Shown one piece after another: positions 16,455 through 60,853 of a stretch of DNA of 64,000 nucleotides. The position numbers and the translations under genes were made by a program. This DNA is from Bacillus sp. ISL-41. Its GTDB lineage: Bacteria > Bacillota > Bacilli > Bacillales > Cytobacillaceae. The stretch spans positions 1 to 64,000 of the forward strand of contig NZ_JAGGQP010000003.1 in assembly GCF_018613235.1 (NCBI RefSeq). Direction: 5' to 3'. The notes beneath the pieces are model-generated. The model worked only from the letters and a program-made list of their open reading frames with translations. It did not search any database and was not told the DNA's origin. Each line of letters begins with the position of its first letter. Position 1 is the first letter of the stretch.

Positions 16455-16728
16455 GCTTCGCCAAAAAGAAGTAACTTGAATCACAATAAATTATTATGTA
16501 AACAATTAATGGCGTTCTGCTTTTATTTTTTCGGTAACAACTTATTCACACTGGATCGGCTTCGGAGCCGTAAGGATGCAAGAGAGGTAGGGCTTGTGTC
16601 GTTTAGGTTAAAAAATGGATCAAGTGGAATTATGTACCGCGGCAAAAGTTTATAATGGATGATTTTTTATACATCTTGTGGAGTAGCAAGTTACTTGAAA
16701 GCGAACCGGGTTCCGGTTCGCTTTTTCT
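16455..16728 (+). ncRNA. Candidate small RNA, about 270 nt
   Basis: Bounded by a near-consensus sigma-A promoter and a strong intrinsic terminator, with no ribosome site plus reading frame of note inside. An internal stable hairpin CGGCT-TCGG-AGCCG sits at 16557-16570. It does not look like 6S, tmRNA, SRP or a known riboswitch to me. It could alternatively be a long leader/trailer or encode a peptide of about 15 residues (ATG near 16616) without a good ribosome site. Confidence 0.5.
16698..16728 (+). terminator. Terminator of the candidate small RNA
   Basis: AAAGCGAACCGG (16698-16709) and CCGGTTCGCTTT (16713-16724), a 12-bp stem with a three-base loop followed by TTCT. The U-rich side lies on the plus strand, showing that a rightward transcript ends here. 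Confidence 0.88.
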
Positions 16729-21939: not shown

Positions 21940-22103
21940 GAAGATAAGACCCCCGTTGAAACGATCTTGATTATTTCGGCTTACGAATTTTTATATCTTC
22001 TATAATACCTCTTTTGGTGAATTTTTTGAATTGAAAGAGAATAATTTATTTTGCTTTTGAGTGCTGAAATTTATTTATAGGCTTAATTTTTTATTTTACA
22101 ACA

Positions 22104-29077: not shown

Positions 29078-30601
29078 TTAAAACTTCACTTCATTCAGTT
29101 TCCGGCGAAGCTGGTATTTCAGGATTTTACCAGAAGCATTCCTTGGCAATGCCTCTTCGATAAATATTTTTCTCGGAACTTTGTATCCTGCAAGTTTTTG
29201 GCGGCAAAAAGCTTTAAGTTCCTGCTCATCAACGACTGCATCCTGCTTTGGCACGATGACTGCGCAGACCGCTTCTCCCCACACCTCATCTGGCAGACCG
29301 ATGATTGCTGCCTCCAGTACGGCAGGGTGTTCATAAAGAACCTCTTCTACTTCAATTGAATAAACATTTTCCCCGCCGGAAATGATCATGTCTTTTTTCC
29401 GGTCGACCAGGGTGATATATCCGTTTTCATCGACGGTTGCTAGGTCACCGGTATAAAGCCAGCCGTCCTTGATTGTTTTAGCCGTTTCTTCAGGCTTTTT
29501 ATAGTATTCTTTCATGATGGACTCGCCTTTGATGACGAACTCGCCGACTGCCCCAGGCTTAATATCCTTACCTTCTTCATCCACCACTCTAGCTTCTGTC
29601 AGGAACGCGGCTTTTCCTCCCTTTCCAAGGTGGTGCCTGTGCCCTTCCGGACCGAGCAGAATGCCGCCAGGACCAGCCTCGGTCAGGCCGCATAGATTGT
29701 AAAATTGGTCAGTCTTGAAAAGCTCCATGCTTTTGCGGACAAGTTCTGGAGCCATTGGTGCAGCACCATAACCGCATCTTTTGATCGAAGATAGGTCATA
29801 ATCAGAAGCATTCGGCACCTGCAGCATAAAGTTGTACATCGCCGGGACTCCAAAAAAGTGGGTGATTTTATGTTGCTGGATTGCTTCAAGCGTTGTAACC
29901 GGATGAAAGTCCCGATGGATGATATGGGTTGCCCCAAGAACGACGCCTGATAACAGGAATAGATTAAGCTGTGCCGAGTGGAACAGCGGAGCGATATGGA
30001 GGATTCTTTCCTCCTGGTTGATTCCCATGCTGATCATCATCGTCAGGCCGACATTGAAGACTCGTTTATGGTCAAACAGGGCACCCTTGGGCCTGCCGGT
30101 TGTCCCGGACGTATACAAGATTTCAAGATCATCATCATTGCTGACTTCAATTTGTGGATCATCGGCATTTTTGGAAAAGACTTTATCGAATGAATGATGT
30201 CCAACTGCTTTAGGGGTTCCAGTAGTGATAACATGCGCTGTATTTGTTCCTTCACGTGCTGAAGTAATGATATCCTCGAACTCATCATCGCAAATCACCA
30301 ACACAGTGCCGGACTGTTCGAGTATGTAATGGACCTCGGATGCTGTCAGGCGGAAATTCACCGGCACAATCACCGCACCGATTTTAGCTCCTGCAAAAAA
30401 AGCAAACACAAACTGATCAGAGTTTTTCATCATTAAAGCAACCCTGTCGCCTTTGTTAACCCCCAGACTGAGCAGACCGTGGGCAAACTTGTTCACTTCC
30501 TCATTAAACTGCTTGTATGTAAAGCTCCTGTCTTCACATTGAATCGCGAGCTTCTCCGGTGTTTTCCTTGCATTTTGCGCTAAATATGAACCGATATCCA
30601 T
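29078..30601 (-). CDS. Long-chain acyl-CoA synthetase, first gene of the sigma-54 operon
   Basis: AMP-forming ligase of 507 residues: P-loop LYTSGTTGRPKG, CGLTEAGPGG, YTGDLATVDENGYITLVDRKKD, and the catalytic Lys in NASGKILK. It begins the unit ligase, dehydrogenase, thiolase, ligase, CaiB, ligase. The ATG at 30601 has AGGGGGG upstream and lies about 40 bases from the predicted sigma-54 start site. The substrate is unknown. Confidence 0.92.
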   Translation of the reverse strand: MDIGSYLAQNARKTPEKLAIQCEDRSFTYKQFNEEVNKFAHGLLSLGVNKGDRVALMMKNSDQFVFAFFAGAKIGAVIVPVNFRLTASEVHYILEQSGTVLVICDDEFEDIITSAREGTNTAHVITTGTPKAVGHHSFDKVFSKNADDPQIEVSNDDDLEILYTSGTTGRPKGALFDHKRVFNVGLTMMISMGINQEERILHIAPLFHSAQLNLFLLSGVVLGATHIIHRDFHPVTTLEAIQQHKITHFFGVPAMYNFMLQVPNASDYDLSSIKRCGYGAAPMAPELVRKSMELFKTDQFYNLCGLTEAGPGGILLGPEGHRHHLGKGGKAAFLTEARVVDEEGKDIKPGAVGEFVIKGESIMKEYYKKPEETAKTIKDGWLYTGDLATVDENGYITLVDRKKDMIISGGENVYSIEVEEVLYEHPAVLEAAIIGLPDEVWGEAVCAVIVPKQDAVVDEQELKAFCRQKLAGYKVPRKIFIEEALPRNASGKILKYQLRRKLNEVKF

Positions 30602-30666: not shown

Positions 30667-30727
30667 ATTTTCCAAAAATAGAGAAGACAGTGACAACCAA
30701 GGAGGAATAAGCATATGTGCCCTGCAA

Positions 30728-30761
30728 AGTGTCCGAAAATTGGACACTGTATTTGGACATT
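30728..30761. promoter_or_regulatory. Upstream activator site for the sigma-54 promoter
   Basis: AGTGTCC (30728-30734), seven bases, GGACACT (30742-30748) is a perfect inverted repeat, and a third half-site GGACA follows at 30755. Its centre is about 98 bases upstream of the predicted start. The same design occurs before the dehydrogenase gene at 33276-34043. Confidence 0.78.
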
Positions 30762-30817
30762 TAAATAGAAGGTGGTTATTGAACCAATAAAACAAAAAAT
30801 TCCGGGAGAAATCTTTT

Positions 30818-30915
30818 TTTATTGCTCGTTTCAGCAGTTTACAGGGTAGTTCATGTCCTTAATTTTTTTAGTGGCGAAGTTCACAACTTTATTGGCCATA
30901 TCCAAAATTTATTGG
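30818..30915. repeat. TTTA-type tandem array (20-21 bp steps)
   Basis: TTTA-led units start at 30818 (TTTATTGC), 30838 (TTTACAGG), 30867 (TTTAGTGG), 30888 and 30908 (both TTTATTGG); steps 20, 29, 21, 20. The unit GTGGCGAAGTTCACAAC is shared with the array at 39136-39215. The last unit runs into the hairpin at 30915-30951. Confidence 0.65.
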
Positions 30916-30951
30916 CGAACTGGAAAAAATCATTAATTTTTTCCAGTTCGC
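30915..30951 (-). terminator. Long hairpin, probable terminator of the sigma-54 activator gene
   Basis: GCGAACTGGAAAAAAT (30915-30930) and ATTTTTTCCAGTTCGC (30936-30951) form a perfect 16-bp stem with a five-base loop. It lies 112 bases past the activator stop codon; the exterior U-run is weak. Confidence 0.6.
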
Positions 30952-31062: not shown

Positions 31063-33111
31063 TTACACGCTCAGCTGGTATTTCTTTATTTTTTCATAAA
31101 GTCCTGAGCGGCTGATGCCTAAAAGCCTTGCTGCCTTTGCTTTGTTTCCGTTCGCCTGGGAGAGCGCTTTTCTGATGGCTCCAAGCTCGGCATCTTCTGC
31201 AAGGCTAATCTGTTCGCCAAGCGGGCTGGATAACTGAGAGATTAGATAGTCCGGCAGGTCCTCAGCCTGAATTTTCCCATGCTCGGCAAAGGTCATCGCG
31301 CGTTCAAGAACATTTCGCAGTTCCCTCACATTGCCCGGCCATTCATATCGTAGTAGTGCGGTCTTTGCCTTTGAAGAGATACCGGTGATGCTCGTGCCCA
31401 GCATCGAATTCAATTCTTTCATTAAACCGATGATCAAATACTCGACATCATGAACACGTTCCCTTAACGGCGGAATATTCAACGATATGACGTTCAGGCG
31501 ATAATAAAGGTCCTCCCTGAACTCTCCCCGCTTCACCATTTCTTCCAGGTTGCGGTTTGTCGCTGCGATAATACGGACATCGACCTTCACCCGGATATTT
31601 CCGCCGACCCTGTAAAACTCCCGCTCCTGCAGGACCCTCAATAGTTTCGCCTGAAGGGAGAGTGACATATCGCCGATTTCATCGAGGAAAAGCGTCCCGC
31701 CATTCGCAAGGTCAAACTTCCCGATTTTACCGCGCTGCTTTGCCCCTGTAAAGGCACCTTCTTCATATCCGAAGAACTCTGATTCGAGCAGGTCCTCCGG
31801 GATCGCGGCACAATTGACAACAACAAACTTGCCTTCGCTCCGGGCGCTGCTGTTATGGATGGCATGCGCGAACAATTCTTTCCCTGTACCGCTTTCACCC
31901 CTGACCAGGACAGTTGACCTTCCTTTCGCTGCTTTGGCAGCACTCTTCTTTAATTTTTCCATATAAGGATCTTCGCTGAAAATATGATCCCAGGTGAACC
32001 TCGCCGACTCTGATTTCTGCAGCTGCTGGTGGTAAAAGCTTGCCTTGTTCTCCGCTTTCTGGAGTCTCTTGAACAGATCGTTGACCTCATTCAGCTGGCG
32101 GAACATCACTTTTCCAATCGCTCCGATCACCTTGCCATCCTTTTTGATTGGAATCCGATGTACAATATATCTTATTCCGTTTATCTGGTGAAAATCGCTT
32201 ACCTCCGCCATTTCTGAGCTAAATACATTGCCAAGCTTCAGCTGAGGAAGTACTTGATCAATCGGTTTATACAAAACTTCTTTTTTTTCCAAATTGAACA
32301 ATTCAAGCAACGGCGGGCTGACCATCGTGATCATGTTCTTTTCGTCTGTCATCAGGATTCCATCATATGCATTCTCGAGCGTCGTCTCGATTGTCAGCTT
32401 CAGCTTTTTGACCGTCTCCAGTTCTTCTGCCATTTTTTCAAATTCAGAAATATCCTGGAATAACAGAATCTTCCCTTCCTCATGATTCACTGTTTCATAG
32501 GAAGAGATATGTAGAATTGATTTGAACTTTTCATAATGATGGGGTGAATTTTCTTCATTCAACAAGCCGGGAAAAACCTCGCCGATCTCCTTAGAAATGA
32601 TTGATTCAACGGACCGGCCGCTGATTTTGGCAAATGCTTCATTTGCATACACCACCATCATCCTGCCGTCAGTCATGAGCACACCGATATTGGAATGCTT
32701 CAGGATCGTTTCCAGCTGGTCCTTGAGTGTATTCGCAGATTTTAACAGAGCGACCACCATATCGGTTTTGGTCAGTAAACCGATGACCTTATCCTGCTCA
32801 TCAAGCACGACCCCTGTCCCAACCTTGCTCGTTTTAACAATTTGCTCGATTTCACGGTAAGGGGTGTCAATACGGATGGACCTTGCTTGCTTCTTTATGT
32901 ATGGCTGGATTGGTGCCTCCAGCGGACTGCCATCCAGAATCATTTGATAAAGCCCGCTCCGGGTAAAAACGCCCTGCAAATTCCGCTCGGCGTCTGTCAC
33001 GGGCAGAAGATTCCATTTCATTTCTTTGAAAATTCCAATTGCCTCTCTTAATGTTGTTTTTTCCGTGACCTTGCAGTCGACAGGCGTCACAATATTCTTG
33101 AATTCAATCAT
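31063..33111 (-). CDS. Sigma-54-dependent transcriptional activator with CBS and PAS sensors
   Basis: Bacterial enhancer-binding protein of 682 residues. In order: two CBS domains (about 1-125), two PAS domains (about 130-345), an AAA+ core with Walker A GESGTGKE (near 405), the sigma-54 contact loop GAFTGA and Walker B GGTLFLDEIGD, and a Fis-type helix-turn-helix (GNKAKAARLLGISRSGLYEKI). The architecture is that of RocR/BkdR-like regulators with adenylate- or acyl-CoA-sensing CBS modules. AAGGAGGG precedes the ATG. It is flanked on both sides by units carrying sigma-54 promoters, so these are its likely targets. Confidence 0.93.
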   Translation of the reverse strand: MIEFKNIVTPVDCKVTEKTTLREAIGIFKEMKWNLLPVTDAERNLQGVFTRSGLYQMILDGSPLEAPIQPYIKKQARSIRIDTPYREIEQIVKTSKVGTGVVLDEQDKVIGLLTKTDMVVALLKSANTLKDQLETILKHSNIGVLMTDGRMMVVYANEAFAKISGRSVESIISKEIGEVFPGLLNEENSPHHYEKFKSILHISSYETVNHEEGKILLFQDISEFEKMAEELETVKKLKLTIETTLENAYDGILMTDEKNMITMVSPPLLELFNLEKKEVLYKPIDQVLPQLKLGNVFSSEMAEVSDFHQINGIRYIVHRIPIKKDGKVIGAIGKVMFRQLNEVNDLFKRLQKAENKASFYHQQLQKSESARFTWDHIFSEDPYMEKLKKSAAKAAKGRSTVLVRGESGTGKELFAHAIHNSSARSEGKFVVVNCAAIPEDLLESEFFGYEEGAFTGAKQRGKIGKFDLANGGTLFLDEIGDMSLSLQAKLLRVLQEREFYRVGGNIRVKVDVRIIAATNRNLEEMVKRGEFREDLYYRLNVISLNIPPLRERVHDVEYLIIGLMKELNSMLGTSITGISSKAKTALLRYEWPGNVRELRNVLERAMTFAEHGKIQAEDLPDYLISQLSSPLGEQISLAEDAELGAIRKALSQANGNKAKAARLLGISRSGLYEKIKKYQLSV

Positions 33112-33275: not shown

Positions 33276-34043
33276 TTATTTCGGCTGCATCCGGATGGCT
33301 CCGTCTAGGCGGATTGTTTCGCCATTCAGCATTGGATTGGTCAGGATGCTTTCAGCAAGCAGCGCATATTCCTCGGGATAACCCAGACGCTGCGGGAATG
33401 GTACCATTTTTCCTAGAGAATCCCTTGCTTCTGCTGGGAGAGAATCGAACATTGGCGTATGAAAAAGCCCTGGTGCAATTGTCATGACCCTGATCCCATA
33501 TGCAGCAAGCTCTCTGGCAATTGGCAGCGTCATGCCGACAACACCGCCTTTTGAAGCACTGTAGGCAGCCTGCCCGATCTGGCCATCAAACGCGGCAACA
33601 GATGCTGTATTAATGATGACGCCCCGCTCGCCAAGTTCATTCGCCTCATTTTTTGACATCTGTTCTGAAGCAAGCCTGATGACATTAAAGGTTCCTATCA
33701 AGTTGATGGAAATTACTTTTGAGAACATGTCCAGGGAATGGACACCTTTTCGTGATAACAGCTTGCCTGCAACTCCAATTCCTGCACAGTTAACAACCGT
33801 GTTGATCGACCCCAATGATTCAATTGCTTTGTTGATCGCATTCAATACTTCTTTCTCACTTATTACATCCGTTTTAATAAATATTGCCTGTTCTCCAAGT
33901 TCTTTAACGAGAGCATCCCCGCGTTCTACAGATAAATCAAGGATCGCTGCCTTCCCCCCTTGCTCTACGATTCTCCTGACAGTTGCTTCTCCCAACCCAG
34001 ACGCTCCGCCTGTAACAATCGCTCTTACTTCACTCATTTTCAT
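33276..34043 (-). CDS. 3-hydroxyacyl-CoA dehydrogenase type 2 (HSD10-like SDR)
   Basis: NAD-dependent oxidation of 3-hydroxyacyl-CoA to 3-ketoacyl-CoA, the step before the thiolase encoded in the neighbouring unit. The 255 residues show [14 protein letters not shown], catalytic Ser/Tyr/Lys in [20 protein letters not shown] followed by KGG, and the type-2 ending [16 protein letters not shown]. The start is ATG at 34043, eight bases after GGGGG; the frame extends to 34091, but that part lies upstream of the predicted sigma-54 transcript start near 34076. Confidence 0.92.
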
Positions 34044-34086
34044 AATTTTTGACCCCCACTTCTCTAAAATTGTTAGTTTTATATAA

Positions 34087-34102
34087 AGCAAGAATCGTGC
34101 CA
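34087..34102 (-). promoter_or_regulatory. Sigma-54 (-24/-12) promoter of the 3-hydroxyacyl-CoA dehydrogenase gene
   Basis: Minus strand TGGCAC, GATTC, TTGCT: a full consensus match with GG and GC ten bases apart. The predicted start is near 34076, 33 bases before the ATG. Confidence 0.92.
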
Positions 34103-34141: not shown

Positions 34142-34182
34142 AGTGTCCAGTTATAGGACAGTTTCATGGAAAAATGGACACT
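34142..34182. promoter_or_regulatory. Upstream activator site for the second sigma-54 promoter
   Basis: AGTGTCC (34142-34148), seven bases, GGACAGT (34156-34162), plus a third half-site GGACACT (34176-34182). Spacer length and half-sites match the site at 30728-30761. Centre about 76 bases upstream of the predicted start. Confidence 0.78.
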
Positions 34183-34243
34183 TGGAGACTTTGAGCTGCA
34201 GACTTCAATCCAGGCTTGTGTCATTTTTTACTAGATAGAATGC

Positions 34244-34340
34244 TTTATCCCCGTTGGATTGGTTTTTATCCTCGTTGAATCGAATTTAATCCCCGTTGAT
34301 CCCGAGTTATTCACCGTTGAAGCTAATTTATTCCCCGTTG
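34244..34340. repeat. TTTAT-type tandem array, exact 21-bp period
   Basis: Five units. The core [C]CCCGTTG or a one- or two-base variant starts at 34249, 34270, 34291, 34312 and 34333, exactly 21 bp apart; four units begin TTTAT or TTAAT and are followed by variable 5-7 base fillers. Non-coding, between the activator site and the terminator of the EamA gene. Confidence 0.8.
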
Positions 34341-34380: not shown

Positions 34381-34410
34381 AAAAAAATGCAGAGCATAAG
34401 CCCTGCATTT
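34381..34410 (-). terminator. Terminator of the EamA transporter gene
   Basis: AAATGCAG (34385-34392) and CTGCATTT (34403-34410), followed by a run of T on the minus strand, ten bases past the stop codon. Confidence 0.85.
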
Positions 34411-34420
34411 AATTTCGATA

Positions 34421-35338
34421 TTAAGCTGCGTTCCGTTTTATCCGGTTTCTCAGCAACAATTCCTCAAGTGCTCCTGATCCGAATATGACACCGGAAACGA
34501 TAAAAATTAATCCCAGCAGGTGCGAAGAGGTAATATGCTCCCCGAGGAAGATGGCTGCGAACATGATTGACAGGAATGTATTCAGGTTCAGGAAAATGGA
34601 TGCTTCCGCTGGTCCGGCTTTGCCAATTGCGTAATTGTAGAGCATGTGCCCTACTGCGGTCGCGAAGATTGCTGAAGCGAAAAACACGCTCCACACTCCT
34701 AGGGAACCATTACTTAAGCTTGCTAATCCACCTGGTTCCTTCCATAGTCCGATAAAAAACATCAGGATTGAGCCGAAAATCAGCATATATCCTGTTAGCA
34801 GACGGGGATCCAGTGTTTTTGCTGCTTTTGAAATAATGATGAAGCTGATCGCCTGAGATAGTATGGACAGAAATACATAAAAATCACCAATCGACATGCC
34901 TGACAGTCCTGTGCTCCCTGCCATCACAGTCAACGAGACGCCAATCCCTCCAAAGATAAAACCGAGTGTCCGTACAAATGTCAGACGTTTCCCAAGGAAT
35001 AAAATTGCCATCAAAGCCGTCAGCAATGGGCCCATGCCGAGGATCAGACCACCGTTAACAGCAGATGTCACTTTTAAACCAATGCCAAGGAATAAATGGT
35101 GGCCAGTGACATTCAGGATTGCCCCGCCTAATATATATTTCCACTCCTGCCTGTACGGCATCCGTACTTTTTTCAAGAAAAATAGAATGATAAACACCGA
35201 GACTCCAGCCGTGAAGACGCGGAGAGAAGTGATTGTGATTGGCGGAAAATTCCCTACTATAACTTTTAGGGCCGTTACATTCATTCCCCACAAAAACATG
35301 ACCCCAGTAAGTATTAAATAGATTTGAAGATTTTTCAC
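34421..35338 (-). CDS. EamA/DMT family transporter
   Basis: Inner-membrane metabolite exporter with ten predicted transmembrane helices in two EamA repeats (the first ends in GIGLKVTSAVNGGLILGMGP, the second in GKAGPAEASIFLNL). About 305 residues from a GTG at 35338, which has GAAGGAA at proper distance; an ATG six codons upstream has no ribosome site. The substrate cannot be predicted. Confidence 0.88.
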   Translation of the reverse strand: MKNLQIYLILTGVMFLWGMNVTALKVIVGNFPPITITSLRVFTAGVSVFIILFFLKKVRMPYRQEWKYILGGAILNVTGHHLFLGIGLKVTSAVNGGLILGMGPLLTALMAILFLGKRLTFVRTLGFIFGGIGVSLTVMAGSTGLSGMSIGDFYVFLSILSQAISFIIISKAAKTLDPRLLTGYMLIFGSILMFFIGLWKEPGGLASLSNGSLGVWSVFFASAIFATAVGHMLYNYAIGKAGPAEASIFLNLNTFLSIMFAAIFLGEHITSSHLLGLIFIVSGVIFGSGALEELLLRNRIKRNAA

Positions 35339-35595
35339 GTTGTTTCCTTCTTTCATTTAAACGGTTAAAGCATAACTAACATTCTACTCCTTTTTTTTAA
35401 AAGGGCAAGAGAGAGGAATACCAACTTTTTACCACCAAGAATAATAAGTACCAAAAATAAAGGATAAATGTCTCATAGGGTGCTAGGTTAAAAGAACGGT
35501 TTGTTATAAAATCCTTCAAAAACCGACAAAAAGAGGTTTAAAAATCTGAATGCTATTTCGGAAAGATAGATACCGCTATGAAGGGAGGTGAAAGA

Positions 35596-36487: not shown

Positions 36488-37978
36488 ATGAATAACTATA
36501 TGAATGGAACAAAAGTTGTGAAGTCTTTTATGTTAGCTGGAGTAATGTCAATCGGGGTACTGACTGGAGGGCAATTCACCCAAGCAGCAGGACCTGAAAA
36601 AGTTAAGGTTGAACAATCTCACGCAGTGAAACCAGCAAAGGGTCAGTCTGCTGAAAAAGCTGAAAAAGCAAAGCCTGCTGTTTCAGCAAAGCCTGCTGCC
36701 AAGCCACAAGTAAAAGCACCAAAAGCAGAATCTAAGGAAAAAGCAGCAAAATCACAAGCTAGCACTCATGCAAGTGAAACGGCTAAAAAGAACGCAGCAC
36801 CAAACGCAGCAGTTCACTCAACTATTCAGCAAGCACCTGCTGAGGAAGTTCCAACTGAAGAAGTTGTTACTCAGGAGCCAGTTGTAGAAGATGTAGTTGA
36901 AGAGGTTGTTGAAGCAGAGCCAGTTGTAACTGATGACACTGAAAAAGATGCTGAATCAGAAGAAACTCCTGAGCTTGAAGAAAATGCAGCAACAGAACAA
37001 GAAGAAGAAAATGCTGAGCTTGACGCTGACACTGAAATGAAAAAGGAAGATGAAGAAGAATCCGATGAGGATTCTGAAGACATTGACCTTGATGCAGACG
37101 CAACTGTAAAAACTGAAGAAGACGAAGAAAATGACTCTGATTCTGAAGACATCGATCTTGATACAGATGCAACAGTGAAAACTGAAGAAGAAGACGAAGA
37201 GGAAGAGGATACTGAAGATAAGGAATCTCCTTCTATCGCTAACAAAATGAAGTCTAGTGCTTTCAATGCAAGCGATGTTGCTAAAGAGAAAGCTAACGAA
37301 AATTCTGCTGTAGCTTTGTCTGTGGAATTCAGTGAAGAAGAAGTTGCTGAAGAAGATGTAAACGAAGAAGACGTTACTGAAGGAGACGTTACTGAAGAAG
37401 ATGTCACTGAAGAAGATGTCACTGAAGAAGATGTCACTGAAGAAGATGTCACTGAAGAAGAAGCTACCGAAGAAGACGCAAAAGTATCTCCTTCTATTGC
37501 TAACAAAATGAAGTCTAAAGCTTTTAATGCAAGTGATGTCGCTAAAGAAAAAGCTAACAAAAACTCAGCTGTTGCTTTGTCTGTTGAAGTGACTGAGGAA
37601 GTCGTTGCTGATGAAACTGCCTCTGAAGAAGCAACTGAAGATGTCGTTGCTGATGAAACTGCCTCTGAAGAAGCAACTGAAGAAGTTGTTGCTGACGAAA
37701 CTGTTACTGAAGAAGTGACTGAAGAAGTTGTTGCTGACGAAACTGTTACTGAAGAAGTGACTGAAGAGGTTGTTGTTGATGAAACTGCTTCTGAAGAAGT
37801 GACTGAAGAAGCTAAAGTTAACCCTTCTGCTGCTAATAAAGCTGCGTCTAAAGCGAGTGAATATGCAAGTGAAATCGCGAAGAAATTTGCTGCATTGATC
37901 TCTGCTGTCTTTGCAGTATTTGAAAAAGCACCTGAAGAAACTACTGAAGAAGTTATCGTTGAAGCAGAAACAAAATAA
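36488..37978 (+). CDS. Secreted acidic repeat protein, unknown
   Basis: Not recognised. 496 residues: a signal peptide ending near QAA, a Lys/Ala-rich segment like its neighbour, then a very acidic repetitive body. Repeats seen: two 34-residue modules (247-280 and 334-367, starting SPSIANKMKS) with a degenerate third near 445; SEDIDLDADATVKTEE twice; EEDVT runs; and about five copies of a VVADETASEEATEE-type unit. Four perfect 15-bp DNA copies lie at 37391-37450. There is no anchor motif. Its extreme negative charge beside a basic partner suggests a charge-paired matrix or coat component; this is inference. Confidence 0.75.
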   Translation: MNNYMNGTKVVKSFMLAGVMSIGVLTGGQFTQAAGPEKVKVEQSHAVKPAKGQSAEKAEKAKPAVSAKPAAKPQVKAPKAESKEKAAKSQASTHASETAKKNAAPNAAVHSTIQQAPAEEVPTEEVVTQEPVVEDVVEEVVEAEPVVTDDTEKDAESEETPELEENAATEQEEENAELDADTEMKKEDEEESDEDSEDIDLDADATVKTEEDEENDSDSEDIDLDTDATVKTEEEDEEEEDTEDKESPSIANKMKSSAFNASDVAKEKANENSAVALSVEFSEEEVAEEDVNEEDVTEGDVTEEDVTEEDVTEEDVTEEDVTEEEATEEDAKVSPSIANKMKSKAFNASDVAKEKANKNSAVALSVEVTEEVVADETASEEATEDVVADETASEEATEEVVADETVTEEVTEEVVADETVTEEVTEEVVVDETASEEVTEEAKVNPSAANKAASKASEYASEIAKKFAALISAVFAVFEKAPEETTEEVIVEAETK

Positions 37979-39135: not shown

Positions 39136-39215
39136 TTTATTGGCTATGTTGACTACGGAATATATTTTATTGGCGGAGTTCACAATTTTATTGGCGATGT
39201 TCACAAATTTAGCAG
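39136..39215. repeat. TTTATTGG tandem array inside the nir operon
   Basis: TTTATTGG starts at 39136, 39166 and 39187, then TTTAGCAG at 39208 (steps 30, 21, 21). Two units continue as GCG-A-GTTCACAA, the same unit as in the array at 30818-30915. It fills the 114-base gap between sirB and sirC and is transcribed with them. Confidence 0.72.
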
Positions 39216-50799: not shown

Positions 50800-50983
50800 G
50801 CTTATTTCTGGATTTGCGAAGTGTATTTGCGGTTGCTCAATTTATATTTAAGGTTACACAACTTTATCTCCAGTTGCGGCAGGTTTATCTCCAGTTGCAG
50901 CAGATTTATCTCCAGTTGCGGCAGATTTATCTCCAGTTGCATAACTTTTATCTCCGGTTACATCCGTTTTATTTACGATTGAC
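50800..50983. repeat. TTTAT-type tandem array, exact 21-bp period
   Basis: TTTAT starts at 50863, 50884, 50905, 50926, 50947 and 50968, exactly 21 bp apart; degenerate units precede at about 50802, 50823 and 50841. The four best units read TTTATCTCCAGTTGC plus a six-base filler such as GGCAGA. A fortuitous frame through it translates to a seven-residue repeat (YLQLRQx), but there is no ribosome site. Confidence 0.85.
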
Positions 50984-50984
50984 C

Positions 50985-51017
50985 AAAAAAGAAGCACCGA
51001 CTCCAAAATCGGGCTTC
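50985..51017 (-). terminator. Terminator of the amino-acid transporter operon
   Basis: On the minus strand GAAGC-CCGA pairs with TCGGTGCTTC, with a one-base bulge, followed by TTTTTT. Eleven bases past the ATPase stop codon. Confidence 0.8.
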
Positions 51018-51027
51018 CTTCCTTTAA

Positions 51028-51750
51028 CTATAAAACCTTGCTCAAAAACGCTCTAGTCCGCTCATGCTGCGGGTTTTCAAATATTTCATTAGGCTGGTTT
51101 TCTTCCACTATCAATCCCCCGTCCATGAAAATGACGCGGTCACCGACTTCACGGGCAAAGCCCATTTCATGGGTGACGACAACCATCGTCATTCCTTCGC
51201 GTGCAAGCTGTTTGATAACCTCCAAAACTTCCCCGACCATTTCTGGGTCAAGCGCTGAGGTTGGTTCGTCGAAAAGCATGATTTTTGGCTCCATCGCAAG
51301 GGCACGGGCGATGGCCACCCGCTGCTTTTGCCCGCCGGATAGTGAGTCTGGGTAGGTCTCTGCTTTGTCCTCGAGACCTACCTTTTTCAGCAGCTCCATT
51401 CCTTTCTCCCTTGCTTGCTGTTCGGAAACACCTCGTACCTTCAACGGAGCCAGCATGATGTTTTCAATCACTGTCTTATGCGGAAACAAATTGAAGTGCT
51501 GGAATACCATTCCGACCTCCTCACGCACTTTGTTGATATCCGTCCCTTTATCAGTAATGTCTATATCTTCAATCAGCACATGCCCGTCCGTAATCGTTTC
51601 GAGCAGGTTTATGCAGCGGAGAAAGGTGGATTTGCCGGAACCAGATGGACCGATCACAACAACGACTTCCTGTGGCTGGACCTCAACATTTATTCCGTTC
51701 AACACCTTGTGGCTGCCAAATGCTTTTTGCAGATTAGCGACTTTAATCAT
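51028..51750 (-). CDS. Amino-acid ABC transporter ATP-binding protein (GlnQ/ArtM-like)
   Basis: 240-residue polar amino-acid importer ATPase: Walker [10 protein letters not shown] (about 34-42), Q-loop [10 protein letters not shown], signature LSGGQKQR, Walker [15 protein letters not shown], switch VTHEMGFA. Starts within the permease stop (four-base ATGA overlap), so it is coupled. Third gene of binding protein-permease-ATPase. Confidence 0.93.
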
Positions 51751-59289: not shown

Positions 59290-59320
59290 CCGGGTTCCTC
59301 CTCCCTATCAATCTGGAAAA

Positions 59321-59347
59321 CAGACACTCTTTTTTTGAGAGTGTCTG
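59321..59347 (-). terminator. Intercistronic hairpin between binding protein and ATPase genes
   Basis: CAGACACTCT (59321-59330) and AGAGTGTCTG (59338-59347), a perfect 10-bp stem followed on the minus strand by TTTTCC. May act as a partial terminator or RNA-processing barrier. Confidence 0.6.
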
Positions 59348-59389
59348 CTTTGTTCACTGAACTGGAAAAAATTCCGTGAAATTTCCAAT

Positions 59390-59502
59390 TCGCTATAAAA
59401 ATGAAATTTTCGCTATAAAAATGAAAAAGTCGCTATAAAATCAAAAAAATCGCTATAAAATTGAAAAAGTCGCTATAAAAATATTTTTTTCGCTATAAAA
59501 AC
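59390..59502. repeat. TTTATAGCGA tandem array, exact 20-bp period
   Basis: TCGCTATAAAA starts at 59390, 59410, 59430, 59450, 59470 and 59490: six copies exactly 20 bp apart, with A/T-rich fillers that vary. Read on the minus strand the unit is TTTATAGCGA plus filler, so it shares the TTTAT lead of the other arrays. It lies inside the transporter operon. Confidence 0.88.
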
Positions 59503-59544: not shown

Positions 59545-60642
59545 TTACTTTTTATAGTGATCCCTCAATTTCTCCATCCAATCTTCCAAAAATGCGTCTG
59601 ATTCGCCCCATCCTTCGATGATTTCAGCAAGATTGACCATGTTTACCGGATTTTTTGACTGCTGCAGCTGTTCCTGTGAAATCAATGAGGCTTCGAGGTC
59701 GTAACTCGCTGGTGTTTCCTCGCCAGCCAGCTTTTTCGCCACCAATCTCATATTCACTTCCCCGATCAGCTTCGGATCGACAGCTGCAGTGTATTTCCAT
59801 GGGCTGCCTTCTCCCTGGATTTCCTGGAGGTCAGCATTGGAAACATCAATTCCGTAGATCTTGATTTCATCGCGGCCAGCTTCCTTGATGGCACGTGCTG
59901 CGCCGATCGCAAACGCATCCCACGTCGCGAAAATCGCGTCAATTTCTCCTTTTGGATGCTTGTTGAGCATCGCGGCCACAGCATTCTGCGTCTGTACACT
60001 TGTATCAGCAGCGGCCACTCCGAATCTCTCAACCTCTTTGATTCCCGGGTTTGCCTTCAAGGTTTCCTGGTAAACTTTATTTCTTCTGACCATTGGCGGG
60101 AAGCCATCAACCCAGAGGTACACGATATTCGCTTCTCCATTTTGGTCCTTCACAAGCTGGTCGAGTGCCTGCGTTGCGAGAGCCTCATCATCCTGTGAAG
60201 TAAGTGTTACGCCTTCGACCTGGGACAAATCCGGATTCGAGTCAAATGTAACAACACTTTTGCCCTCATCCCTTAATTTTTTCACGTCATCTACTGTTGC
60301 CGCGTCATCACCATGGGAAATGATGAATCCATCATAATCCTGCTGCAGTCCCTGGTTGATCGCGTCATGGAATTTGGCTGTATCTCCATTCGCCGTGAAG
60401 ACGTCTACCTTGAAGCCGAGCGCTTCCCCTTCAGCTTTCGCTCCGGCTAAAAATTGCGCTGTATGGTCATCTCCGCCAATCTTGCGGATGACTTTGATTT
60501 TGACTTCCTCACCTTTTGCAAATCGCTCCGGAACTCCTTCCACAGGACCGCTGGCCGTTTTCGTCTCTCCGCCGCCGCAGCCTGTAAGAAGCAATGCAGA
60601 AGCAACTGCACCTAAAAATATTTTTTTAATTCCATTTTTCAT
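59545..60642 (-). CDS. Ribose-type sugar-binding lipoprotein, candidate methylthioribose receptor
   Basis: 365 residues: lipobox LLTGC at about residue 22, then a periplasmic-binding-protein type 1 fold (Peripla_BP_4) with IRKIGGDDHTAQFLAGAKAE, FIISHGDDAA and ATWDAFAIGAARAIKEAGRD. First gene behind a SAM-I riboswitch, which ties its use to sulfur/methionine status. GGGGGAG precedes the ATG. Confidence 0.9.
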   Translation of the reverse strand: MKNGIKKIFLGAVASALLLTGCGGGETKTASGPVEGVPERFAKGEEVKIKVIRKIGGDDHTAQFLAGAKAEGEALGFKVDVFTANGDTAKFHDAINQGLQQDYDGFIISHGDDAATVDDVKKLRDEGKSVVTFDSNPDLSQVEGVTLTSQDDEALATQALDQLVKDQNGEANIVYLWVDGFPPMVRRNKVYQETLKANPGIKEVERFGVAAADTSVQTQNAVAAMLNKHPKGEIDAIFATWDAFAIGAARAIKEAGRDEIKIYGIDVSNADLQEIQGEGSPWKYTAAVDPKLIGEVNMRLVAKKLAGEETPASYDLEASLISQEQLQQSKNPVNMVNLAEIIEGWGESDAFLEDWMEKLRDHYKK

Positions 60643-60683: not shown

Positions 60684-60853
60684 TAAAAAAACCTCTCCAG
60701 AAAAGAGAGGTTTCAAACGCAAGAAAATGCAAAGTCGGATTCCTCTCTTATCTTTCAAAACAAATAATTGTTTTGCAGGATTTAGCACCAATTCCAATGG
60801 AACGGTTGCTGGGCGTCACAGGGCCAGTCCCTCTGCCACTCTTGATAAGAGAA
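60684..60853 (-). ncRNA. SAM-I riboswitch (S-box) with terminator
   Basis: Minus strand. P1 arms CTCTTATC and GATAAGAG (plus-strand 60844-60851 and 60745-60752). Between them are the S-box core strings AGGGACTGGCCC, GACGCCCAGCAACC, GGTGCTAAATCCTGC. Downstream an intrinsic terminator, AACCTCTC / GAGAGGTT (60690-60712) with a run of seven T. The 3' P1 strand can pair with the terminator arm (AAGAGAGG with CCTCTCTT), the usual antiterminator. SAM binding should switch off the transporter genes downstream. Confidence 0.96.

What the first reader, a model, noticed from the sequence alone, without database searches (positions are those of the whole stretch)
34244..34340. A family of TTTA/TTTAT-led intergenic arrays with 20-21 bp periods and locus-specific words
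Five intergenic arrays share a plan: units start TTTA/TTTAT, are spaced by 20 or 21 bp, and carry a word specific to the site (CCCCGTTG at 34244; CTCCAGTTGC at 50863; TGGCGA-GTTCAC at 30818 and 39136; AGCGA at 59390 on the other strand). The words keep strict phase while filler bases vary, so the spacing itself seems selected or recently amplified. A 20-21 bp step is about two helical turns, which would put one face of the DNA in register for a repeating protein. I know of no name for this family.
Basis: partly seen in the sequence, partly recalled or inferred. Interest (0 to 1): 0.75.

Follow-up and report, generated by a model that had tools for sequence, protein, structure and literature searches.

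The report
Phase-locked repeat arrays behind bacterial genes
Short DNA words repeated every 20-21 letters sit just behind the stop signals of many genes in some relatives of Bacillus; the words are preserved while the letters between them drift, which suggests an undescribed kind of protein-docking site.

Summary
The arrays are real: at each of the five window sites, none of 500 local shuffles reaches the observed score. They belong to a larger family. All 21 genomes held of the genus have matches (one weakly), and some genomes of other genera and families carry the same TTTAT lead and 20-21 bp step with other words. Words are not locus-specific: AGCGA, TGGCGA and GTTG types recur at many loci, and a whole array can differ in word between species at one locus. 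Phase is tight: 155 of 165 neighbouring ATAGCGA words lie exactly 20 bp apart. In 12 non-overlapping ortholog pairs words differ 4%, fillers 24%. Many GCGA arrays end in an inverted 'cap' of fixed spacing. Of 38 genus arrays facing an antisense gene, 27 have that gene's terminator-like hairpin within 150 bp. Best explanation: phased binding platforms for unidentified DNA-binding protein(s) that insulate genes behind terminators; anatomy and conservation are shown, protein and effect inferred. Wrapping by gyrase or a nucleoid protein is the main rival. Ten library searches gave no description.

The parts
34244..34340 (+). array of the GTTG type, 21-bp step, words CCCCGTTG/CTCGTTG/CACCGTTG
   Evidence: at the orthologous locus I read an array, by eye, in about 16 of 21 genus genomes and none in G002, G008, G010, G012, G015
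34381..34412 (-). A-run and hairpin: probable intrinsic terminator of the EamA-type gene 34421-35356(-), behind the 3' end of the array
   Evidence: W34
50841..50980 (+). array of the GTTG type, word CTCCAGTTG, 21-bp step; a 42-bp period is also reported
50985..51018 (-). A-run and hairpin, possible terminator of the ABC-ATPase gene 51028-51750(-)
   Evidence: by eye; not detected by the rule
30867..30918 (+). degenerate array of the TTTATTGGCGA type
   Evidence: the orthologous locus of G018 (L209) has four TGGCG units
30918..30948 (.). terminal inverted cap AACTGGAAA...TTTCCAGTT of the 30818 array
   Evidence: composite ends of this kind: 302 matches in 21 genus genomes, 0 for the backward control
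39136..39211 (+). short TTTATTGGCGA-type array (units 39136, 39166, 39187) between the SirC-like and CbiX-like genes
59390..59501 (-). array of six TTTATAGCGA units, exact 20-bp steps
   Evidence: array in 18 of 20 orthologous loci, own included
59320..59349 (.). hairpin CAGACACTC...GAGTGTCTG between the cap and the next gene; a like hairpin stands in two loci without the array
   Evidence: L102, L104

Best explanation
The arrays are phased operator platforms: DNA in which TTTAT plus a word is the recognition site of a sequence-specific DNA-binding protein, or of a small family of paralogous proteins with different word preferences, repeated every two helical turns so that copies line up on one face and bind cooperatively. 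The inverted cap is the boundary of the platform. Their place directly behind intrinsic terminators, usually antisense to the terminated gene, suggests that the occupied platform stops polymerases that read through the terminator and so insulates the next gene. Shown here: anatomy, phase, conservation of word and cap arms, position and orientation bias, spread, word differences between orthologous arrays. Inferred: the protein, its occupancy, and the insulating effect.
For: Phase: ATAGCGA words 155 of 165 adjacent pairs at exactly 20 bp, one at 19, none at 21-39; G040 48 of 59 and G034 24 of 28 at 21. Conservation: 12 non-overlapping ortholog pairs (seven at the 59390 locus, five at other loci) give TTTAT 21/310, word 14/326, filler 140/576 mismatches (rows; word against filler Fisher 1e-16); over all 55 overlapping pairs cap arm 1 is 56/495, cap arm 2 19/584, cap loop 158/548, flank 586/3131. 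DNA rather than RNA: mean folding z about 0 over 18 own-genome arrays, single values -4.1 to 2.7; cap arms at near-constant spacing. Place: terminator-like hairpin on the bottom strand within 150 bp 3' of 27 of 38 genus arrays whose right-hand gene is antisense, 3 of 38 on the 5' side, about 0.5 in shuffles; 10 of 25 against 2 of 25 in named genera. Right-hand gene antisense in 64 of 83 arrays; tandem pairs 46 to 13; divergent gaps 6 of 83. The 20 neighbouring proteins annotated are functionally diverse.
Against: No binding protein was found or tested. A fixed protein does not by itself explain why one array keeps one word while others in the same genome use different words. Some arrays are on the sense strand (59390; 19 of 83 have a sense right-hand gene). 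GTTG arrays show no such cap by eye and no half-unit periodicity. 11 of 38 genus arrays, 6 of 10 in G034, 3 of 6 in G046 and 15 of 25 in named genera show no terminator by my rule. Most genomes outside the genus are not enriched, so the platform would be a lineage-specific feature.
Confidence: 0.42

Rival explanations
1. Supercoil sinks: the arrays are strongly bendable DNA, with GC content alternating every 10-10.5 bp, that is wrapped by DNA gyrase or a nucleoid protein behind transcription units, where supercoils gather.
For: The 10-10.5-bp GC harmonic of the unit is reached by few filler-column shuffles in G040 (6 of 2000), G026 (5) and G034 (35), and is borderline in TGGCG-20 (99), AGCGA (109) and G046-21 (111). 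In E. coli the gyrase motif has phased 10-bp G/C variation and sites are enriched downstream of highly transcribed operons (passages of PMC6379681). The arrays lie behind terminators.
Against: Bendability alone does not require exact 9-11-base words, yet words differ 4% and fillers 24%. No such periodicity in TGGCG-21 (474 of 2000), GTTG (1033) or G046-20 (1102) units. The same paper places gyrase in regions of about 2-5 kb beyond transcription ends and says the attraction seems not hard-wired.
Confidence: 0.18
2. Mobile or copied elements: array plus cap is a non-autonomous element that spreads to sites next to terminators, moved by a transposase or by gene conversion between loci.
For: Same words and cap at many unlinked loci; arrays differ in word between species at one locus; arrays present in some species and absent in others; identical array strings a few hundred bp apart in G034 and G026.
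Against: 28 of 48 array loci of relatives match the flanks of one of 29 own-genome array loci, so much is shared by descent (at least two of the 48 are duplicates). Y1 transposase (PF01797) has no match in G006, G015 and G016, which carry 21, 21 and 27 composite ends; other transposases were not tested. No AGCGA triple in viral contigs. No clean empty site or target duplication seen by eye at the one locus read for this.
Confidence: 0.13
3. The arrays act as RNA: the TTTAT strand is transcribed and the repeats or the cap hairpin work in the transcript.
For: The cap can fold as a hairpin. In one column pair standard combinations are common (C-G 56, T-A 17, T-G 23, against C-A 19 and 11 others of 126), a weak association (Fisher 0.09); own L037 has a T-A pair in the W-W columns. 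G040 and G034 top strands fold better than shuffles on average (mean z -2.2 over 5 and -2.1 over 7 arrays).
Against: Own-genome arrays on average fold no better than shuffles; the W-W columns give A-T 102, A-A 13, T-T 11 and no T-A in 126; cap length is near-constant; no Rfam match at the window arrays. RNA gives no obvious reason for exact 20-21 spacing.
Confidence: 0.08
4. Neutral tandem duplication (minisatellites): slippage copies whatever unit is present and nothing is selected.
For: Unit number varies in phase between species (G013 lacks three units of G000); blocks of like units in L017 and L047; 50863 looks recently amplified.
Against: Words recur at unlinked loci and in other species; fillers differ about six times as often as words within aligned units; position and orientation are biased.
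Confidence: 0.06

Closest known systems
REP/BIME elements
   Same: Many dispersed extragenic copies in mosaic clusters with regular spacing, protein binding (start of abstract of PMC2817692 in the listing); gyrase cleavage in some BIME-2 (passages of PMC6379681); location at 3' ends is recalled
   Different: REPs are palindromes, in alternating orientation in BIMEs, with associated tyrosine transposases; these are direct repeats in one orientation, and 3 of 21 genomes have no Y1 match
Plasmid and phage iterons beside a stem-loop origin (recalled)
   Same: Direct repeats of about two helical turns beside an inverted repeat
   Different: Dozens of chromosomal loci; no replication gene among the 20 neighbours annotated; words differ between loci
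CRISPR arrays (recalled)
   Same: Short conserved repeat alternating with variable filler at constant step
   Different: Repeat and filler are about 10 bp each; no cas gene among the 20 neighbours annotated
bcr1 and other stem-loop repeat families of bacilli (passages of PMC2267715)
   Same: Dispersed repeats in bacilli
   Different: Listed there as folding elements of about 70-170 bp, not phased tandem words; I did not compare sequences
Tandem repeats (LTRR) of filamentous cyanobacteria (recalled)
   Same: Tandem repeats; the 21-bp scan also hit Nostoc, Tolypothrix and Pelatocladus
   Different: Relation, cap and terminator position not examined

Membership tests
REP/BIME | palindromic unit | tested here: not met
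   units are direct repeats; own-genome arrays have on average no excess fold
REP/BIME | linked RAYT (Y1) transposase in the genome | tested here: not met
   PF01797 has no match in 3 of 21 genomes (G006, G015, G016), which carry 21, 21 and 27 composite ends; a match in 18 of 21
CRISPR | repeat of about 23-47 bp with unique spacers of similar length (recalled) | tested here: not met
   about 10 conserved plus 10 filler bases
CRISPR | cas genes | not tested
   no search for cas genes; none among the 20 neighbours annotated
Iteron origin | adjacent replication initiator gene | tested here: not met
   20 proteins at 15 own-genome loci (both sides at 5, right side only at 10): none is a Rep protein; other loci not annotated
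Structured RNA element | compensatory base changes in the stem | tested here: inconclusive
   126 of 302 composite ends: W-W columns without T-A; the C/T-G/A columns weakly associated, Fisher 0.09; L037 has one T-A
Minisatellite (VNTR) | tandem copies vary in number | tested here: met
   unit number differs between species at the 59390 locus
Minisatellite (VNTR) | similarity explained by local duplication only | tested here: not met
   same words at unlinked loci; filler diverged, word kept
Gyrase strong site | phased 10-bp GC variation | tested here: inconclusive
   3 of 9 unit sets clear, 3 borderline, 3 not
Gyrase strong site | gyrase cleavage in vivo | not testable with these tools
   needs cleavage mapping
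Phased protein-binding array | phase-locked, conserved words with free fillers | tested here: met
Phased protein-binding array | bound protein | not testable with these tools
   needs ChIP or affinity purification

The most novel reading that the evidence does not exclude
A post-terminator chromatin of Bacillales: capped, helically phased arrays bound along one DNA face by dedicated, fast-evolving DNA-binding proteins act as polar insulators behind genes; array words and the proteins' specificities co-evolve, so that each lineage, and even each locus, rewrites its word in concert while TTTAT and the 20-21-bp step stay fixed.
Probability: 0.3. Interest if true: 0.88.

Novelty: categorically new. 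Interest (0 to 1): 0.72.

Why it matters
If true, a number of Bacillales (array-like units were read in Lysinibacillus, Planococcus, Gracilibacillus, Sporolactobacillus, Neobacillus and others) mark the ends of transcription units with a protein-bound DNA platform. B. subtilis itself was not tested here. The family offers natural replicate arrays with different words for testing how phased binding affects polymerase, a naturally varying protein-DNA recognition code, and candidate insulators. Even if the protein idea fails, an abundant, conserved class of intergenic sequence for which ten library searches gave no description needs explaining.

Tried and rejected
RNA element: disfavoured for the own-genome type by average folding, by the W-W columns of the cap and by the lack of an Rfam match at the window arrays, but not excluded. 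An early impression (note) that wobble in the cap favoured one strand did not survive the count (T-G 23, C-A 19 of 126). My note says 'no compensatory covariation'; the later test (Fisher 0.09) makes that inconclusive, and I raised the RNA rival from 0.06 to 0.08 and lowered the mobile one from 0.14 to 0.13.

Y1 transposase as the mover: not required, no match in 3 of 21 genomes; 18 of 21 have one. Phage origin: no AGCGA triple in viral contigs; other words were not scanned there.

Coding: 21-bp units leave open frames of 91-239 codons over some arrays, but 20-bp units and mixed 20/21 arrays break a frame.

Origin clustering: composite ends looked confined to about 1.2 Mb around dnaA (17 of 18 in G018 within 1.05 Mb, 20 of 20 in G019), but the fuller list for G019 has arrays out to 2.33 Mb on one arm, so I do not use it.

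Literature: ten searches listed no paper that I recognised as describing these arrays; two searches were aimed at comparison families. I saw search listings for all and passages only of PMC6379681 and PMC2267715. The library lacks most subscription papers.

Limits and dropped rows: gene context came from a simple longest-ORF rule, not a gene finder. The 83 arrays were picked from listed matches in seven genomes, not at random. In one search, 170 pairs were tried and 55 kept (under 22% mismatch, over 100 aligned bases); pairs of arrays with different words mostly fall out. The 12 non-overlapping pairs were chosen by me from those 55. Cap statistics use 126 of 302 matches. Terminators were tested only for arrays with an antisense right-hand gene: 38 of 38 in the genus set, 10 of 12 in G034, 6 of 6 in G046; G040, G026 and G023 were not tested. 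In one search, 27 of the 28 loci that I take for Bacillales were given and 2 fell at a contig edge.

Full report
What is in the window. Reading the five sites and running Tandem Repeats Finder confirms the arrays at 34244 (21 bp, 4.6 copies), 50863 (21 bp) and 59390 (20 bp, minus strand); 39136 has three units with one 21-bp step, and 30818 is degenerate. With a score that rewards TTTA starts, 20-21-bp steps and word identity, none of 500 dinucleotide shuffles reaches the observed value in any of the five regions; four control regions and a further TTTA chain at 22074 that shares no word are reached by 490, 500, 500, 500 and 102 of 500.

Spread in this genome and genus. The window lies in a 4.62-Mb genome of 57 contigs. 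The pattern TTTAT-TTTAT-TTTA with steps of 19-23 bp has 94 matches there against 30 for the backward control. Reading them shows a small vocabulary rather than site-specific words: TTTATAGCGA (20 bp), TTTATTGGCGA (20 or 21), a CGGTTG/CCAGTTG/CCCGTTG type (21), TTTATTCGCAAA and one TTTATCTGGTAAAG array. One search covered 61 genomes, own included. Of the 20 other genus members, 19 exceed the control at least fivefold and G008 twofold (16 against 8). Of 40 genomes outside the genus, four exceed it eightfold or more (G034, G040, G044, G050); G026, G033, G039, G046 and G056 about 2.5- to 3.3-fold; the rest less. A stricter pattern in six genomes chosen from these gives G034 37 against 1, G040 143 against 3, G044 139 against 1, G050 30 against 1, G026 35 against 7 and G023 39 against 29.

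Same plan, other words. Words read in those genomes are TTTATCTACGGTAAA (G034), TTTATGCG[CT]nAAATnTTG (G040, with arrays of many units), TTTATCAACCAACTTTT (G046), TTTATGTCCTCATTTT (G026), TTTATCGACCACTTTT and TTTATGAGCCGCTTTT (G023), TTTATCGACCACTTTT (G050). By name I take 28 of the 80 for Bacillales (Lysinibacillus, Planococcus, Planomicrobium, Gracilibacillus, Sporolactobacillus, Neobacillus, Metabacillus, Allobacillus, Rummeliibacillus, Cytobacillus and others), many with array-like units such as TTTATCAGCGA, TTTATCGTCGATT or TTTATTTGCGAA. I printed eight of the other 52: four are heptamer or identical-copy repeats, but four (two cyanobacteria, a Bacteroidetes and an archaeal assembly) are not and were not examined. 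So confinement to Bacillales is not shown. In 220 genomes drawn evenly from the class, 130 have at least one match; clear excess over control is rare (G000 49 against 4, G006 82 against 7, G050 30 against 1, G168 48 against 16, G244 12 against 0, smaller in G062 and G158), and in G120 and G270 the control is higher than the pattern. Viral contigs hold no stretch with three AGCGA units.

Phase. Over the genus loci fetched, duplicates removed, 155 of 165 neighbouring ATAGCGA words are exactly 20 bp apart, one is 19, six are 40, one 41 and two 60. TTTATTGGCG words: 49 at 20 and 40 at 21 of 106, the 21-bp units carrying their own TTCACA-like filler. TTTATGCG in G040: 48 of 59 at 21; TTTATCnACGGTA in G034: 24 of 28 at 21.

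Conservation. I aligned orthologous arrays: 170 pairs tried, 55 kept for similarity. In these 55 overlapping pairs, mismatches are 52/1378 in words, 102/1336 in TTTAT, 612/2264 in fillers and 586/3131 in flanks; in 12 pairs that share no sequence they are 14/326 in words, 21/310 in TTTAT and 140/576 in fillers (sums made from the rows). Seven of the 12 are from one locus, so they are not fully independent. Units were labelled by the consensus word in one sequence only, so the label does not by itself make the other sequence conserved. Cap arms are kept (56/495 and 19/584) and the cap loop is not (158/548). I read this as purifying selection on words and phase.

The cap. By eye most AGCGA arrays of the own genome, and some TGGCGA arrays, end by running from the last word into AACTGGAAA, a spacer, and TTTCCAGTT; the TTTATTCGCAAA array does too; L028, L023 and 39136 do not. 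The composite pattern has 302 matches in the 21 genus genomes and none for the backward control. In the 126 that I examined, total length is 39 in 39 of 45 AGCGA ends and 40 in 61 of 66 TGGCGA ends, and the first arm follows the word (C in 60 of 66 after TGGCGA, T in 31 of 45 after AGCGA). Evidence for pairing between the arms is inconclusive: the W-W columns hold A-T 102, A-A 13, T-T 11 and no T-A, although L037, outside the 126, has one; the other columns tested are weakly associated (Fisher 0.09). Own-genome arrays on average fold no better than shuffles on either strand. I therefore favour a two-arm DNA site over an RNA hairpin. GTTG arrays lack this cap by eye. G034 and G046 seem to have end units of their own (TTTATCTACAGTAG; ATGCCATTCGAC), also by eye.

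Word differences at one locus. At the locus of 59390, 20 loci were compared, own included: 18 have arrays; G005, G006, G007 and G018 use TTTATTGGCGA, the others TTTATAGCGA, with a like cap and the same flanking gene; G008 has none and G010 a remnant; G012 has no ortholog. Unit number varies; G013 equals G000 less three units. Of 48 array loci from relatives (two are duplicates), 28 match the flanks of one of 29 own-genome array loci; several differ in word (for example L202/L049, L205/L044, L206/L043, L210/L020, L215/L036) and mixed arrays occur. At the locus of 34244 I read arrays in about 16 of 21 species. Long GTTG arrays are mosaics of word blocks (L017, L047).

Place and orientation. For 83 arrays of seven genomes, the gene on the 3' side of the TTTAT strand is antisense in 64 (two-sided binomial 7e-7); in tandem gene pairs the array is antisense to both in 46 and sense in 13; 6 lie in divergent gaps. 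In 38 genus arrays with an antisense right-hand gene, 27 have a terminator-like hairpin with T-run on that gene's strand within 150 bp of the array, 3 on the other side, about 0.5 expected from shuffles (Fisher 2e-8). Elsewhere the rule finds 4 of 10 against 0 of 10 (G034), 3 of 6 against 1 of 6 (G046) and 10 of 25 against 2 of 25 (named genera; 6 of 25 also on the top strand). The 20 neighbouring proteins annotated are unrelated in function, such as ATP synthase epsilon, QueF, a chemotaxis receptor, ABC transporters, sigma-54 regulators and short-chain dehydrogenases.

Mechanism. Phase, conserved words and free fillers call for something that reads DNA from one face every two turns. I think an oligomerising, sequence-specific protein is most likely, and that the arrays work as insulators or roadblocks behind terminators, because of where and how they lie. 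This last step is inference. The unit also shows a 10-10.5-bp GC rhythm in G040, G026 and G034, borderline in three other unit sets and absent in three, like that of E. coli gyrase sites, so wrapping by gyrase or a nucleoid protein is a serious rival or a second layer. Word differences inside a fixed site are the least explained fact; local unit turnover plus paralogous proteins is my guess.

Novelty. Ten searches of the held library gave no description. Tested defining features of REP/BIME, CRISPR, iteron origins and simple minisatellites are not met; a structured RNA is not supported but not excluded. I therefore rate it categorically new as a class of sequence, while its function remains to be shown.

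Noticed in passing
window 34145-34185 and 30725-30765: TGTCC...GGACA-like boxes upstream of the SDR gene 33276-34091 and of the AMP-binding gene 29078-30601; similar boxes stand in the 34244-locus orthologs. They could be activator sites of the sigma-54 regulator 31063-33111.
   Followed up: no
G019: TTTAT strand is mostly antisense to replication: by hand, right arm 18 minus to 4 plus, left arm 10 plus to 1 minus (six places judged not arrays left out); no arrays from 2.33 to 3.64 Mb. Confounded with gene orientation and core-gene position.
   Followed up: partly
G046 (L228, L229), G040 (L222, L226), window 50863-50959: Two unit types alternate (41-42-bp higher-order repeats), e.g. CAACCAACT 20 bp and CAACCACTT 21 bp.
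   Followed up: no
G034 and G026: Identical or near-identical array strings recur a few hundred bp apart (about 325-560 bp in G034, 216 and 432 bp in G026), as if array plus flank were duplicated in tandem.
   Followed up: no
L272, L290 and other Nostocales loci: 21-bp TTTAT-led tandem repeats also turn up in filamentous cyanobacteria; relation not examined.
   Followed up: no
window 37038-37811: Strongly repetitive coding stretch (periods 15, 42 and 69 bp) inside ORF 36488-37978.
   Followed up: no
window 16526-16612 and 60745-60851, minus strand: Rfam matches: BsrC sRNA and a SAM riboswitch; the riboswitch lies upstream of the sugar-binding gene 59545-60642, next to the 59390 array.
   Followed up: no
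G008, same genus: Nearly array-free (16 hits against 8 control, one composite end): a natural contrast for finding the binding protein.
   Followed up: no
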